Positions 1-4,531 of a DNA stretch of 64,000 bases are shown in pieces. Under the pieces are notes generated by a model, which saw only the letters and a program-made list of their open reading frames with translations, had not been told where the DNA came from and searched no databases. A program made the position numbers and the translations under genes. The stretch spans positions 1-64,000 of the forward strand of contig JAKACW010000010.1 in the NCBI GenBank assembly GCA_021821045.1. The letters run 5' to 3'. Numbering within the stretch: the stretch's first letter is position 1; the number at the start of each line of letters is the position of its first letter. This stretch comes from Pseudomonadota bacterium. Its GTDB lineage: Bacteria > Pseudomonadota > Gammaproteobacteria > JAADHS01.

Positions 1-399
1 ACGCTCACCCAGCATGGCCAACGCAGCATCATGGGGCAGCGCTACATCCCAGAAATCACCAAAGGTGACAAACGTATCCTCATGATAAATGGCGAGCCAG
101 TGCCCTACGCCTTGGCGCGAATTCCCGCTCAAGGCGAAACCCGGGGTAACCTCGCCGCCGGTGGACGGGGCGAAGGCCGACCGTTGACCGAGCGGGACAA
201 ATGGCTGTGCCAGCAGGTCGGCCCGACCCTACGCGAGAAGGGGCTATTGTTCGTCGGCCTCGATGTGATTGGCGATTATTTGACCGAAATCAACGTCACC
301 AGTCCGACCTGCATTCGCGAGCTGGACGAGATCTTTAACCTTAAAATAGCGTCGCAACTGTTTGATGTAATTGACGGGAAGCTGGCGGCGCGACCGTGA
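1..399 (+). CDS. gshB: Glutathione synthetase, C-terminal part (5' end outside window)
   Basis: Joins gamma-glutamylcysteine and glycine using ATP, the second step of glutathione synthesis in the cytosol. The frame is open from base 1, so only the last 132 residues are present. They match the ATP-grasp C-terminal lobe: the basic stretch around GQRYIPEITKGDKR, the glycine-rich loop RGNLAAGGRGE, and the ending VIGDYLTEINVTSPTC that carries the metal- and ATP-binding acidic and Asn residues. In Pseudomonas-type genomes gshB is followed by tonB, yqgE, ruvX and pyr genes. Here tonB comes only about 9 kb later, so foreign or rearranged DNA separates them. Identification is firm. Confidence 0.95.
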   Translation, partial: TLTQHGQRSIMGQRYIPEITKGDKRILMINGEPVPYALARIPAQGETRGNLAAGGRGEGRPLTERDKWLCQQVGPTLREKGLLFVGLDVIGDYLTEINVTSPTCIRELDEIFNLKIASQLFDVIDGKLAARP

Positions 400-423
400 T
401 ATTCAACATCGTGCGCAACAGTT

Positions 424-597
424 GTGGGAGCGGATCATTCCGCGATGAATCGGCACCACCCTCGATTCCGGCATTCCATCGCGGTAAGAAACCGCTCCCA
501 CGACAAGAGGCAAGCCAGAGTGGGAGCGGATCATTCCGCGATTCTTGGCCCGAATCGTCTCTCCGACTGAGTCATCGCGGTAGGAAACCGCTCGCAC
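424..597. repeat. Two REP pairs (four REP copies, REPIN-like)
   Basis: Four hairpin units at 424-446, 478-501 (inverted), 520-542 and 574-597 (inverted). Each has head GTGGGAGCG, a short stem-loop and tail CGCGAT. Units 1 and 3 have stem GCGGA/TCCGC; units 2 and 4 have GCGGT/ACCGC. Direct and inverted copies alternate, as in REPINs. The last copy ends 8 bases before the apbE start codon. Confidence 0.9.
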
Positions 598-605
598 AGC
601 GGTTC

Positions 606-1769: not shown

Positions 1770-2156
1770 ATGAACTCTAGAATTCACGCCAACATCACCA
1801 AAGCCGACTGGGTCGTCGTCGCCCTGGCCATCGCCGTGTTGCCGGTGCTCTATATCAAGTTCTGGAGCCACGGCTCCGTCTTCGCCGAAACCGTACAGCT
1901 CAATATTCCCGGCCAGTCCATCCAGAACCTGTCGTTGCGCGAAAACCAAACCCTCAAAGTGGAAGGGCCGCTGGGCATCACCACCATTGAAGTGCGCGAC
2001 GGCAAAGTTCGTTTCGTCGATTCGCCCTGCCCCGGCAAGCAGTGCATCCACGCCGGCTGGCTGAGCGTCGACGGCGACTTCGCCGCCTGCATTCCGAACC
2101 ACATCAGCTTGCTGGTAGCCGGCAGCGATTTCACGGTGGATACGATAAACTTCTAG
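1770..2156 (+). CDS. NusG domain II-containing membrane-anchored protein
   Basis: 128 residues. An N-terminal transmembrane segment (about residues 14-32, VVVALAIAVLPVLYIKFW) is followed by a small beta domain of the NusG_II type, ending with the cysteine-containing motif SPCPGKQCIHAGW and a further Cys in AACIPNHIS. This family occurs next to apbE and Gx-transporter (heptaprenyl diphosphate synthase component I-like) genes; both are in this window, the second displaced to 9030. Function is unknown. A link to flavinylated, membrane-bound redox chains is inferred from the ApbE neighbour only. The start is the first ATG after a spacer with REPs. Confidence 0.75.
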   Translation: MNSRIHANITKADWVVVALAIAVLPVLYIKFWSHGSVFAETVQLNIPGQSIQNLSLRENQTLKVEGPLGITTIEVRDGKVRFVDSPCPGKQCIHAGWLSVDGDFAACIPNHISLLVAGSDFTVDTINF

Positions 2157-2166
2157 GTCAGTTGCG

Positions 2167-2227
2167 GTGGGAGCGGATCATTCCGCGATTGACTTGACGA
2201 AGAATCGCGGTAGGAAACCGCTCCCAC
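2167..2227. repeat. REP pair (REPIN-like)
   Basis: Direct copy 2167-2189 (stem GCGGA/TCCGC) and inverted copy 2204-2227 (stem GCGGT/ACCGC). A further REP head, GTGGGAG at 2248-2254, is cut off where the IS110 element begins. Confidence 0.9.
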
Positions 2228-2270
2228 GACATGATCAGCAATATCCTGTGGGAGATTCTATGTTCCATGT

Positions 2271-3224
2271 CTAGCCCCCGGCAAGGATTGGAGCACGGTA
2301 ATCTGACTTGTTCTTGAGCAAGGAAAAGCAGATCCGGGCAAGCTTGCGGCAGAGTGCGACGGTGGCCTGTGTTGTGCTAAAGCCCCGTTCGATGAGACTG
2401 GAGTAATAGGGTTTCATTGCTTGGCCGCGGGCGGCGGCGCGAGCGGCGTTGAAGAGCAGGCGGCGACATTCGGCCTCGCCCTTCTTGGTGAGTTTGCGTT
2501 TGCCCTTGTAGGTGCCCGAGTCGCGCACCCGCACGTCCAGACCGAGGAAGGCGACGAACGCATCGCTGTTTTGGAACTGGCCACGATGGAAGGCGGCGAC
2601 CATGGCGAGGGCGTTGAGCGGGCCGACGCCGTAAATGGTGCGCAGGCGCGCGATGTCCTCGCGCCAGCCTTGTTCGGTGGCCAGCTGCAGGAGTTGTTTT
2701 TCGATGCTCAGGACCAGGTTGTCCAGTTTGCTGAGCGCGGCGGTGAGGCTCGATTTAACGGCTTTGAGTTCGCCGCAGGACTGGCGTAGCTGACCCATCA
2801 AGGCAACCACCTTGGCGCGGCGTTTGAGCAATTGCCACAGCCGTTGCTGTGCCGCAGGCAGCAGCTGGTAAGGACGCAACTCTTCGCGCTCCTTGGCCAG
2901 GTAGCGGGCGATCAACTGCGCATCGGTCAGATCGGTCTTGGCGCGCACGCCGACGCTGTCGCGGTAATGGCTTAAGCGATAGCCATCGATGAGATAAACC
3001 GTCAGTCCGTGTTGGATGGCCAATTCCACCACCTCGCAGTGGTAAGTGTTGGTGGTTTCCACGCCCAGACACGCGTTCTGTGGCAACTGCTTAAGCCACG
3101 CTTTGATGGCTTTACGTTCATTTTGCACCGATACCACCGACGACGAATCGCCGTGGCAGCACACTTCCAACGTGCGTTTGCACACATCAACACCGTAGAT
3201 GATGGGGGTCACTTTCTGTGCCAT
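2271..3224 (-). CDS. IS110-family transposase
   Basis: Seeker-type recombinase of an insertion sequence. The N-terminal RuvC-like DEDD domain is visible: D in YGVDVCKRTLEV, E in GVETTNTYH, and two D in KTDLTDAQLIARYL. The C-terminal Transposase_20 domain carries the likely serine nucleophile in RVRDSGTYKGKRKLTKKGE. Helical linker between. The ATG at 3224 gives MAQKVTPIIYGVDV, the usual family start; the frame runs 29 codons further upstream, probably not translated. About 317 residues and apparently intact. IS110 enzymes use a structured bridge RNA from the element's non-coding end to choose target and donor; a candidate region lies immediately upstream. Confidence 0.9.
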   Translation of the reverse strand: MAQKVTPIIYGVDVCKRTLEVCCHGDSSSVVSVQNERKAIKAWLKQLPQNACLGVETTNTYHCEVVELAIQHGLTVYLIDGYRLSHYRDSVGVRAKTDLTDAQLIARYLAKEREELRPYQLLPAAQQRLWQLLKRRAKVVALMGQLRQSCGELKAVKSSLTAALSKLDNLVLSIEKQLLQLATEQGWREDIARLRTIYGVGPLNALAMVAAFHRGQFQNSDAFVAFLGLDVRVRDSGTYKGKRKLTKKGEAECRRLLFNAARAAARGQAMKPYYSSLIERGFSTTQATVALCRKLARICFSLLKNKSDYRAPILAGG

Positions 3225-3500
3225 ACTGACCTCGCTTGTGAAATGAGGAAGCCGGGGTCCACCGAGCACGAGCTTGCGAAATTGGGCGGTCATAGCCGCT
3301 AGATTCTTCATCGGTGCTTAAGGTGGGGGTGGGGTGAACTCTCCCACGGGCCGTACTCCTTGGAGTCGGAAGCGGATTTTGTCCCACCACCCCGGTAACC
3401 TCTTTATGCACTCACAAAGAGGTCACCTGCAAACATACAAGCGGTAGCCGATGCACATGGATGTGCGAATGTCGCGAGAGGGCAGGACGCCCGTAGCGAC
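3225..3500 (-). ncRNA. Candidate IS110 bridge RNA region
   Basis: Long non-coding end of the IS, upstream of the transposase and read in the same direction. It has several potential hairpins: AACCTCTTT / AAAGAGGT arms at about 3398-3423, ACTCC / GGAGT around 3355-3366, and a GGTGGGGG-rich stretch (3321-3335) facing CCCACCACCCC (3382-3392). It also contains CTCCCAC (3341-3347), the complement of the REP head into which the element is inserted, as expected for a target-guide loop. The assignment rests on family knowledge; the fold was not computed. Confidence 0.45.
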
Positions 3501-3510
3501 TACCGCGATT
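3501..3510. repeat. Tail half of a REP interrupted by the IS110 element
   Basis: TACCGCGATT matches the 3' arm of the GCGGT/ACCGC REP type, whose head lies at 2248-2254 on the far side of the IS. Only about 25 bases separate it from the next start codon. Confidence 0.6.
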
Positions 3511-3535
3511 CCAGCCTTCAACGTAGATTTTACCC

Positions 3536-4531
3536 ATGACCACAAACCCAGCTCCGGCCCGCTACTTCCCCTTCCGCAGCGGCCAGTACAAAGTCGCCGC
3601 CGGTTTGTATGCCCTGGGCCAGGATTTCGGCAACGGTCAACGCGACAAGCAAATTTTTCAAATCGATCACGACTGGCCCGACTACCGCGAGGCCAAGCTG
3701 GCCGCCCGCGCCGAATCGCTCGCCAAATATGTGTGTCACGACGGCTTCGAGGCGCCGCTCAAACGTGAAGTGAATCTGTGGTTCATCCGGCAGTTGGCCA
3801 AGGAACATCCCGCCCAATTCACACTCCATGACGACGCCCGGCAGCTTGTCCTGCGCTGCAATCTCAGTCACGAGACGCTGCGCTTCTCGGTGGACGGCGA
3901 ACTCATTGCCGCCGAAACCGGCGGCCTCGGCGCCGCCATCGAACCGGCGTACGCCGACGCCTGGGATGCCCTGGCCTGCCAGATTCAAGAGGACCTGGCC
4001 GTTGTTCACGCGCCAAGCGACGCCGAAGAAAAACTCGTCGCCCTGCACCTGTGCTTCCCCAACCACTGGGCGGCCCAGGACAAAATCGGCAAGCCGTTTT
4101 TGAACATCCATCGCCCCGTCGCGGACTTCGAGCAGATCGCCCGCACCGCGCCGGCGCTGCTCAAGAACATGATCACCCGCGGCCCCTTCGTGCGTTTCGC
4201 CTGGGGCCTGGCAACGGACTCGCGCCTCAACCATCACCCGCGCCCGCCGCCGGACTTCCCGGCCGATGCGGCCTGGCATGGCCGGCGCTTCGATCCCGAT
4301 CAGCCTCAGCTCTATGTCCGCGTCGAACGCCAGACGTTGACGGGATTGCCCCAAGTCGACGCTTGCGTGTTCACCATTCGCACTTATTTTCTCGACGTCG
4401 CCACCCTCGACAGTAACGACCGCCTCGCCTTGCGCGACGCGATTGTGTCCATGTCGGATGCGGTGCTGCGGTACAAAGGCATCGCTAGCTACCAGGATGC
4501 CGTGACCGCGTGGCTGGGGATGCGTCACTGA
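3536..4531 (+). CDS. DUF3445 / haem-dependent oxidative N-demethylase-like protein
   Basis: 331 residues resembling the DUF3445 family, whose characterised member is the haem-binding subunit of dimethylamine monooxygenase. Family-like features are the N-terminal MTTNPAPARYFPFRSGQYKVAAGLYAL, the segment HLCFPNHWAAQDKIGKPFLNIHRPV, the NHHPRP element, and YVRVERQTLTGLP followed by VFTIRTYF near the end. No reductase or ferredoxin gene is adjacent, so the physiological substrate is unknown. The IS110 element ends about 35 bases upstream, so its original promoter may be lost; no clear Shine-Dalgarno is seen. Its codon use resembles the core genes. Confidence 0.75.
   Translation: MTTNPAPARYFPFRSGQYKVAAGLYALGQDFGNGQRDKQIFQIDHDWPDYREAKLAARAESLAKYVCHDGFEAPLKREVNLWFIRQLAKEHPAQFTLHDDARQLVLRCNLSHETLRFSVDGELIAAETGGLGAAIEPAYADAWDALACQIQEDLAVVHAPSDAEEKLVALHLCFPNHWAAQDKIGKPFLNIHRPVADFEQIARTAPALLKNMITRGPFVRFAWGLATDSRLNHHPRPPPDFPADAAWHGRRFDPDQPQLYVRVERQTLTGLPQVDACVFTIRTYFLDVATLDSNDRLALRDAIVSMSDAVLRYKGIASYQDAVTAWLGMRH

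What the first reader, a model, noticed from the sequence alone, without database searches (positions are those of the whole stretch)
2248..3510. IS110 element inserted in a REP, with a guide-like match in its non-coding end
The REP head GTGGGAG stops at 2254 and a REP tail TACCGCGATT resumes at 3501, giving an IS of normal size. The 275-base leader contains CTCCCAC, complementary to the REP head, among several hairpins. Known: IS110 elements use bridge RNAs with two programmable loops, and some relatives target REPs. Inference: the target loop is programmed for this REP family.
Basis: partly seen in the sequence, partly recalled or inferred. Interest (0 to 1): 0.65.

Follow-up and report, generated by a model that had tools for sequence, protein, structure and literature searches.

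The report
REP-targeting IS110 with its bridge RNA
A small jumping gene sits inside one of a bacterium's many repeated palindromes, and the RNA it encodes carries guide sequences that fit this repeat family, as in the known bridge-RNA elements; it is a new example of a known kind, with a guide that seems fitted to the whole repeat population rather than to the one site it occupies.

Summary
The finding is real, with corrected coordinates. A single-copy IS110-group element (1187 bp, minus strand) lies between CT cores at 2253-2254 and 3440-3441. The flanks rejoin into a long REP variant (74 of 77 bases identical to its best genomic relative). The 215-nt left end encodes a bridge RNA: a covariance model built from 30 homologues without the window finds it as its only hit in 64 kb (E about 6e-23). 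The CTCCCAC that was noticed is the right target guide and matches the occupied site perfectly. Across 43 RNA clusters (window included), guides covary with insertion sites (0 of 20,000 permutations reach the observed match), so RNA programming holds for this subfamily. One twist: the left guide matches the occupied site at only 3 of 7 positions, yet ranks 4th of 16,384 possible 7-mers for the number of the host's REP arms within two mismatches. IS621, ISPpu9, ISPpu10 and ISPa11 are published REP-targeting relatives in the IS110 family, so this is a new member of a known kind. Activity is untested.

The parts
2255..3441 (-). IS110-group element, 1187 bp counting one copy of the CT core (equivalently 2253-3439)
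   Evidence: Ends fixed by rejoining the flanks into a long REP and by the conserved family ends CTTGTATG / CATAGAATCT
2253..2254 (-). core CT at the right end
3440..3441 (-). core CT at the left end
2271..3224 (-). IS110 recombinase, 317 aa; DEDD residues D13, E56, D98, D101 and serine S236 conserved
   Evidence: Pfam PF01548 and PF02371, NCBIfam NF033542 'IS110 family RNA-guided transposase', alignment, similarity to IS621 structure 8wt6, catalytic residues as named in PMC11208158
3248..3395 (-). bridge RNA core: target-binding loop plus donor-binding loop
   Evidence: covariance model R1 built from 30 homologues without the window: 109.6 bits, E 5.8e-23, only hit in 64 kb
3394..3427 (-). 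5' stem-loop of the bridge RNA (15-bp hairpin)
   Evidence: fold, z-score -3.58 for the 200-nt leader
3371..3379 (-). left target guide (LTG) AAATCCGCT
   Evidence: position by homologue alignment; 3 of 7 non-core matches to the occupied site, within two mismatches of 134 of 184 genomic CTCCCAC sites
   Evidence: exact complement of the occupied right target CTCCCAC
3301..3309 (-). left donor guide (LDG) GAAGAATCT; its last 7 nt AGAATCT equal the right end of the element through the core
   Evidence: donor covariation in relatives
3273..3277 (-). right donor guide (RDG) GCAAG; CAAG complementary to core plus TG (CTTG)
2268..2273 (-). predicted -35 TAGACA in the right end, overlapping the recombinase stop codon; joined to the -10 only in the circular form
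   Evidence: family alignment: first three bases of this hexamer T/T/G in 37, 32 and 33 of 41 clusters, spacer 17
3432..3437 (-). predicted -10 TATGTT in the left end
2247..2254 (+). head of the interrupted REP (TGTGGGAG)
3442..3510 (+). rest of the interrupted long REP variant
2167..2227 (.). neighbouring uninterrupted REP pair (BIME-like)

Best explanation
This is an IS110-group insertion sequence that moves as a circle. Circularisation joins a -35 box in the right end to a -10 box in the left end and drives a bridge RNA. The target-binding loop of that RNA directs the DEDD/serine recombinase to REP arms ending ...CCG-CT-CCCAC, where it recombines at the CT core; the donor-binding loop recognises the element's own joined ends (AGAAT-CT-TGTATG). 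Shown here: ends, core, recombinase motifs, RNA architecture by homology, exact right guide, left guide fitted to the REP population, and guide-target covariation in the subfamily. Inferred: transcription, circle formation, recombinase binding and activity of this copy.
For: Empty site restored: 66-74 of 77 bases identical to 19 genomic REP copies. Both Pfam IS110 domains, conserved catalytic residues. Covariance model without the window hits the leader at E 5.8e-23, only hit in 64 kb; fold z -3.58. One sequence per RNA cluster: LTG versus own target 5.54 of 7 against 2.75 when permuted (n=39), RTG 4.80 of 5 against 3.12 (n=40), 0 of 20,000 permutations as good for either; holds for clusters whose right target is neither CTCCCAC nor CTCCTAC (LTG n=10, RTG n=11). 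Donor side: the two clusters whose right end reads AGGATCT also carry the G in the donor guide, the other 39 readable clusters carry A on both sides (2 of 43 unread). The window's LTG reaches 134 of 184 genomic sites at 5 or more of 7; the next best of the 43 cluster LTGs (window included) reaches 85, and it ranks 4th of 16,384 7-mers. Promoter halves conserved across the junction.
Against: The LTG matches the occupied left half (GCTACCG) at only 3 of 7 non-core positions; about 27% of all CT dinucleotides in the sample do as well, so on its own site the left guide is not significant. Only one copy in the genome, so in-genome retargeting cannot be tested. Rfam release 15 shows no bridge-RNA match here even at a permissive threshold (only one chance-level hit). 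No expression or activity data.
Confidence: 0.93

Rival explanations
1. The recombinase alone recognises REP hairpins or sequence; the leader match is a coincidence or a by-product of REP sequence carried into the element.
For: 17 of 39 clusters with a left flank insert next to a perfect stem of 5 bp or more ending at the core, against a shuffled mean of 1.2 and maximum of 6, so hairpins are strongly over-represented at the sites.
Against: 22 of 39 lack such a stem; the guides change with the site, including sites unrelated to CTCCCAC/CTCCTAC. The enrichment is what RNA guides aimed at REPs would give anyway.
Confidence: 0.03
2. A bridge-RNA element that is decayed or immobile: the LTG or the occupied REP has drifted since insertion, so the copy no longer recognises its own site well. 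(Compatible with the best explanation for origin; it differs on present activity.)
For: LTG matches its site at 3 of 7, among the lowest of 76 loci (5 of the other 75 are at 3 or below); two of the three differences from the closest intact REP copy L002 fall in the LTG-paired bases; single copy despite about a thousand potential targets.
Against: Recombinase frame and all five catalytic residues intact; RNA fold intact; LTG still fits most genomic REPs; CTACCGCTCCCAC exists once elsewhere in the genome in uninterrupted form, so the occupied variant may have pre-existed.
Confidence: 0.3
3. Member of the IS1111 group instead (bridge/seek RNA downstream of the gene).
For: IS1111-group elements such as ISPa11 also target REPs (PMC11187229 passages).
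Against: The right end is only 16 nt (2255-2270); the RNA lies upstream of the gene.
Confidence: 0.01

Closest known systems
IS621 (E. coli; IS110 group; PMC11208160, PMC11208158)
   Same: DEDD + serine recombinase, left-end bridge RNA with 5' stem-loop, target and donor loops, CT core, REP targets, promoter formed across the joined ends; natural target differs from the guide at a position (ATCAGGCCTAC vs ATCGGGCCTAC)
   Different: Distant in sequence (phmmer E 1.4e-15 to 8wt6); other REP family; RTG complementarity of 7 nt rather than IS621's 4
ISPpu9 and ISPpu10 (Pseudomonas putida; PMC1525189, PMC8450116; ISPpu10 named in an Extended Data legend of PMC11208160)
   Same: IS110 family, 7 of 7 copies of each in REPs in KT2440, 2-bp repeat at the core, long 5' untranslated region in ISPpu9
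ISPa11 (P. aeruginosa; IS1111-group seekRNA element)
   Same: REP-targeting, RNA-guided (PMC11187229 passages)
   Different: Non-coding RNA region downstream of the gene
Alcanivorax, Halomonas, Pseudomonas, Thioalkalivibrio, Natronospira and Nitrospirota homologues found here (among L022, L046, L051-L136)
   Same: about 40-50% recombinase identity, same ends CTTGTATG / CATAGAATCT, same RNA plan
   Different: Different guides matching different, mostly REP-like, targets

Membership tests
IS110 family, IS110 group | Recombinase with DEDD RuvC-like domain (PF01548) and Tnp domain (PF02371) with catalytic serine | tested here: met
IS110 family, IS110 group | Long left non-coding end upstream of the gene, short right end | tested here: met
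   215 nt against 16 nt
IS110 family, IS110 group | Insertion at a short core with a precisely restorable empty site | tested here: met
   CT core on the gene strand; joined flanks 66-74 of 77 to 19 REP copies
Bridge-RNA elements | Left-end RNA with 5' stem-loop, target-binding loop and donor-binding loop | tested here: met
   (by homology to relatives and folding; no experimental RNA)
Bridge-RNA elements | Right target guide complementary to the top strand right of and including the core | tested here: met
   7 of 7
Bridge-RNA elements | Left target guide complementary to the bottom strand left of and including the core | tested here: inconclusive
   3 of 7 non-core plus the core at the occupied site; 5-6 of 7 at 134 of 184 genomic CTCCCAC sites
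Bridge-RNA elements | Donor guides matching the element's own joined ends | tested here: met
   AGAATCT 7 nt, CAAG 4 nt; donor covariation 2 of 2 variants in the family
Bridge-RNA elements | Promoter reconstituted across the joined ends in the circle | tested here: inconclusive
   sequence only: TAGACA - 17 nt - TATGTT; spacing and T-T-G start conserved in most of 41 clusters, but many -35 boxes match the consensus at only 3 of 6
Bridge-RNA elements | RNA-dependent recombination activity | not testable with these tools
   needs experiment
IS1111 group | Guide RNA region downstream of the gene | tested here: not met
   right end is 16 nt; RNA upstream
IS1111 group | Sub-terminal inverted repeats of 7-17 bp | not tested
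   no dedicated search made
REP (for the target) | High-copy dispersed sequence with paired inverted arms | tested here: met
   548 and 465 occurrences of two arm motifs; arms in inverted pairs

The most novel reading that the evidence does not exclude
The left target guide is selected as a consensus for a repeat population rather than as a copy of one site. The full exact target of the guides, AAATCCGCTCCCAC, occurs only 3 times in the genome and at 0 of 184 sampled sites, yet AAATCCG is within two mismatches of both main REP arm types (GAAACCG and TGATCCG, each 5 of 7) and ranks 4th of 16,384 7-mers on that count. REP-dwelling bridge RNAs may trade exact pairing for reach over a drifting repeat family.
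Probability: 0.2. Interest if true: 0.45.

Novelty: new member of a known kind. Interest (0 to 1): 0.32.

Why it matters
It adds a well-delimited natural bridge-RNA element with a 7-nt right guide, and places it in a subfamily of 43 RNA clusters in which ends and RNA scaffold are nearly constant while target guides change with the insertion site. That is a natural record of guide reprogramming and gives ready test pairs of guide and target. It also shows a guide that fits a repeat family better than the site it occupies, which bears on how much mismatch such recombinases tolerate in nature.

Tried and rejected
Rfam release 15 on 1900-3900 at a permissive threshold gave only one hit far below its gathering score (mir-790 on the REP hairpin): rejected as chance. 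A first genome-contig scan and a viral-contig scan with the single protein found no relative; a second genome-contig scan with alignment A1 found 132 relatives, best 80 kept. Plasmid records gave only relatives below 60% identity (the listed rows 26-31%), not used.

Rows dropped: of 89 entries (80 loci, 8, window) 7 lacked one unique readable left end (L062, L069, L072, L075, L076, L077, L116, whose loci begin inside or near the element at contig ends), leaving 82. Of these, 76 had a left flank and 78 a right flank; clustering at RNA similarity 0.93 left 43 clusters, 39 and 40 usable for LTG and RTG. The covariance model used 30 of the 42 non-window clusters, chosen by me for having the full RNA plan. 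Against the reading: clusters L055 (0 of 7), L056 (1), L059 (3) and the window (3), and the loci L102 and L114 (2), match poorly on the left side; guide positions were found by a motif rule, so some of these may be one or more bases out of register.

The 464-kb sample for REP-site counts is 20 stretches of 20 kb plus the window (10% of the genome), chosen by me partly among contigs that had shown REP hits, so densities may be biased upward; it also contains the element's own RTG and right junction among the 184 sites. The hypothesis that the 346-aa reading frame is the real gene was rejected because homologues align from about residue 18-40 onward (the close ones from 21-35) and it would start inside the donor loop.

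Full report
What is there. On the minus strand of the window lies one IS110-group element. Read along the gene strand it is ...CATCGGCTACCG-CT-TGTATGTTTGC [RNA] [recombinase] ...GGAACATAGAAT-CT-CCCACAGGATATT. The recombinase runs from 3224 to 2271 (317 aa). It carries both IS110 Pfam domains and matches NCBIfam's RNA-guided IS110 model above its cut-off (170 bits against 140). In an alignment with six relatives the residues D13, E56, D98, D101 and S236 are invariant; these correspond to the DEDD plus serine site described for IS621 (PMC11208158, passages; sequence match to 8wt6, E 1.4e-15). The element is present once in the 4.5-Mb host assembly.

Ends. A DNA search of the host genome with 2255-3500 returned, besides the element itself, 41 short matches, most of which start at 3440 and the rest a few bases inside it: 3440-3500 belongs to a repeat. 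That repeat is a long REP variant, GTGGGAGCGGTTTCC + about 50 structured bases + TACCGCGATT. Rejoining the flanks with one core gives 77 bases identical to the 19 fetched genomic copies at 66 to 74 positions. The insertion point is thus GTGGG-AG-CGG on the plus strand, i.e. a CT core on the gene strand.

The RNA. The 215-nt left end folds far better than dinucleotide shuffles (first 200 nt: z -3.58, 0 of 200 as stable), with a 15-bp 5' hairpin followed by two loop domains. Relatives were gathered by protein: 8 loci in 7 genomes besides the host, of 369 genomes of the class searched, and the best 80 of 132 loci in genome contigs. From 30 of their leaders, window excluded, I aligned the two-loop region, took the RNAalifold consensus (25 pairs, 13 with at least one compensatory change) and built a covariance model. 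It finds the window's leader at 3395-3248 minus with 109.6 bits, E 5.8e-23 (E-values from this calibration are rough), and nothing else in 64 kb up to E 10.

Guides. By position in that RNA the left target guide is AAATCCGCT (3379-3371), the right target guide GTGGGAG (3347-3341), the left donor guide GAAGAATCT (3309-3301), the right donor guide GCAAG (3277-3273). The donor guides match the element's own ends (AGAATCT; CTTG).

Does the RNA set the target? In the subfamily, yes by covariation. Eighty-two elements (81 relatives and the window) gave readable left ends; they fall in 43 RNA clusters. One per cluster, the left guide matches its own target at 5.54 of 7 non-core positions against 2.75 for permuted pairings (39 clusters) and the right guide at 4.80 of 5 against 3.12 (40 clusters); 0 of 20,000 permutations reach either value. 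The effect holds among the clusters whose right target is neither CTCCCAC nor CTCCTAC (LTG 5.8 against 2.47, n=10; RTG 4.45 against 2.03, n=11). The permutations do not model relatedness between clusters. On the donor side the right end reads AGGATCT in two clusters and the donor guide follows in both; the other 39 readable of 43 clusters carry A on both sides. This reproduces, on a small set, what Durrant and co-workers reported on thousands of pairs (PMC11208160, sections on the RNA, covariation and bridging read in full).

The twist. At the occupied site the window's left guide matches only 3 of 7 non-core bases (GCTACCG), no better than 27% of random CT dinucleotides. Two of the three differences between the occupied REP and its closest intact relative L002 are in those seven bases. 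Yet in a 464-kb sample of the host (10% of it, chosen partly from REP-bearing contigs) 134 of 184 CTCCCAC sites are within two mismatches of the guide (53 GAAACCG and 48 TGATCCG are the commonest). The next best of the 43 cluster guides, window included, reaches 85, and only 3 of 16,383 other 7-mers do better. The full exact target AAATCCGCTCCCAC occurs 3 times in the genome. So the guide is programmed for this REP family, not for the occupied copy. Either the occupied REP or the guide has drifted, or the guide is a population compromise; a single copy cannot tell these apart. IS621 itself prefers a natural target one base off its guide (PMC11208160, passage).

Promoter. Across the circle junction the family keeps a -35-like hexamer 17 nt before TATG[T/G]T; its first three bases are T, T and G in 37, 32 and 33 of 41 clusters, and in the window it reads TAGACA, overlapping the stop codon. 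Many members match the -35 consensus at only 3 of 6. This agrees with the published promoter formed on circularisation but is sequence inference.

Targets of the subfamily. 29 of 40 clusters with a readable right flank insert before CTCCCAC or CTCCTAC, and 17 of 39 have a perfect hairpin of 5 bp or more ending at the core, against a shuffled mean of 1.2 and maximum of 6. In four Pseudomonas genomes with several fetched copies all of those sit at the same REP position: sp. KNUC1026 6 of 6, P. zanjanensis 5 of 5, sp. TH43 4 of 4, sp. TH15 2 of 2 (loci, flanks). That these flanks are the Pseudomonas REP is recognised from memory, supported by their recurrence here.

Known or new. REP targeting by IS110 elements was described in 2006 (ISPpu9, ISPpu10, ISPa11; PMC1525189, results and tables read), bridge RNAs in 2024 (PMC11208160; PMC11187229, one section and passages), and the Durrant paper names ISPpu10 and ISPa11 among elements with predicted guides (legend passage). 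For ISPpu9 I read the abstract and passages of PMC8450116. The window's element is a new member. I did not find a paper on this subfamily or on guides fitted to a repeat population in the listings of searches of the held library, which lacks most subscription journals.

Noticed in passing
window 3440-3510 and loci L002-L020: A long REP variant in which about 50 structured bases (GATGCACATGGATGTGCGAATGTCGCGAGAGGGCAGGATGCCCGTAGCGAC) sit inside the ordinary REP arm, about 40 copies in the host genome.
   Followed up: partly
host genome loci L157, L158, L159, L160: Four Y1-type transposase genes (PF01797) over the family cut-off, candidates for the REP-associated transposases that spread these REPs (the RAYT label is recalled, not from a call).
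   Followed up: no
L082, L091-L093 and L105, L115, L118-L121: Several Pseudomonas relatives have right ends of about 160-230 nt where most others are below about 50, reminiscent of the extra small-RNA gene reported downstream of tnp in ISPpu9 (PMC8450116).
   Followed up: no
window 396-600: The listed 411-aa ORF starts with GTG inside a run of REP sequence; its true start is probably downstream.
   Followed up: no
L130, L132, L136: Nitrospirota relatives share a different target, CTCAAAC, with matching right guides, so the subfamily reaches beyond Proteobacteria.
   Followed up: partly
window 3245-3260 and 3388-3396, and relatives: The 3' end of the RNA region (ACCCCGG, in relatives CCCCGACAAGC) can pair with the stretch just after the 5' hairpin, shortly upstream of the recombinase start: a possible closing helix or translation switch.
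   Followed up: no
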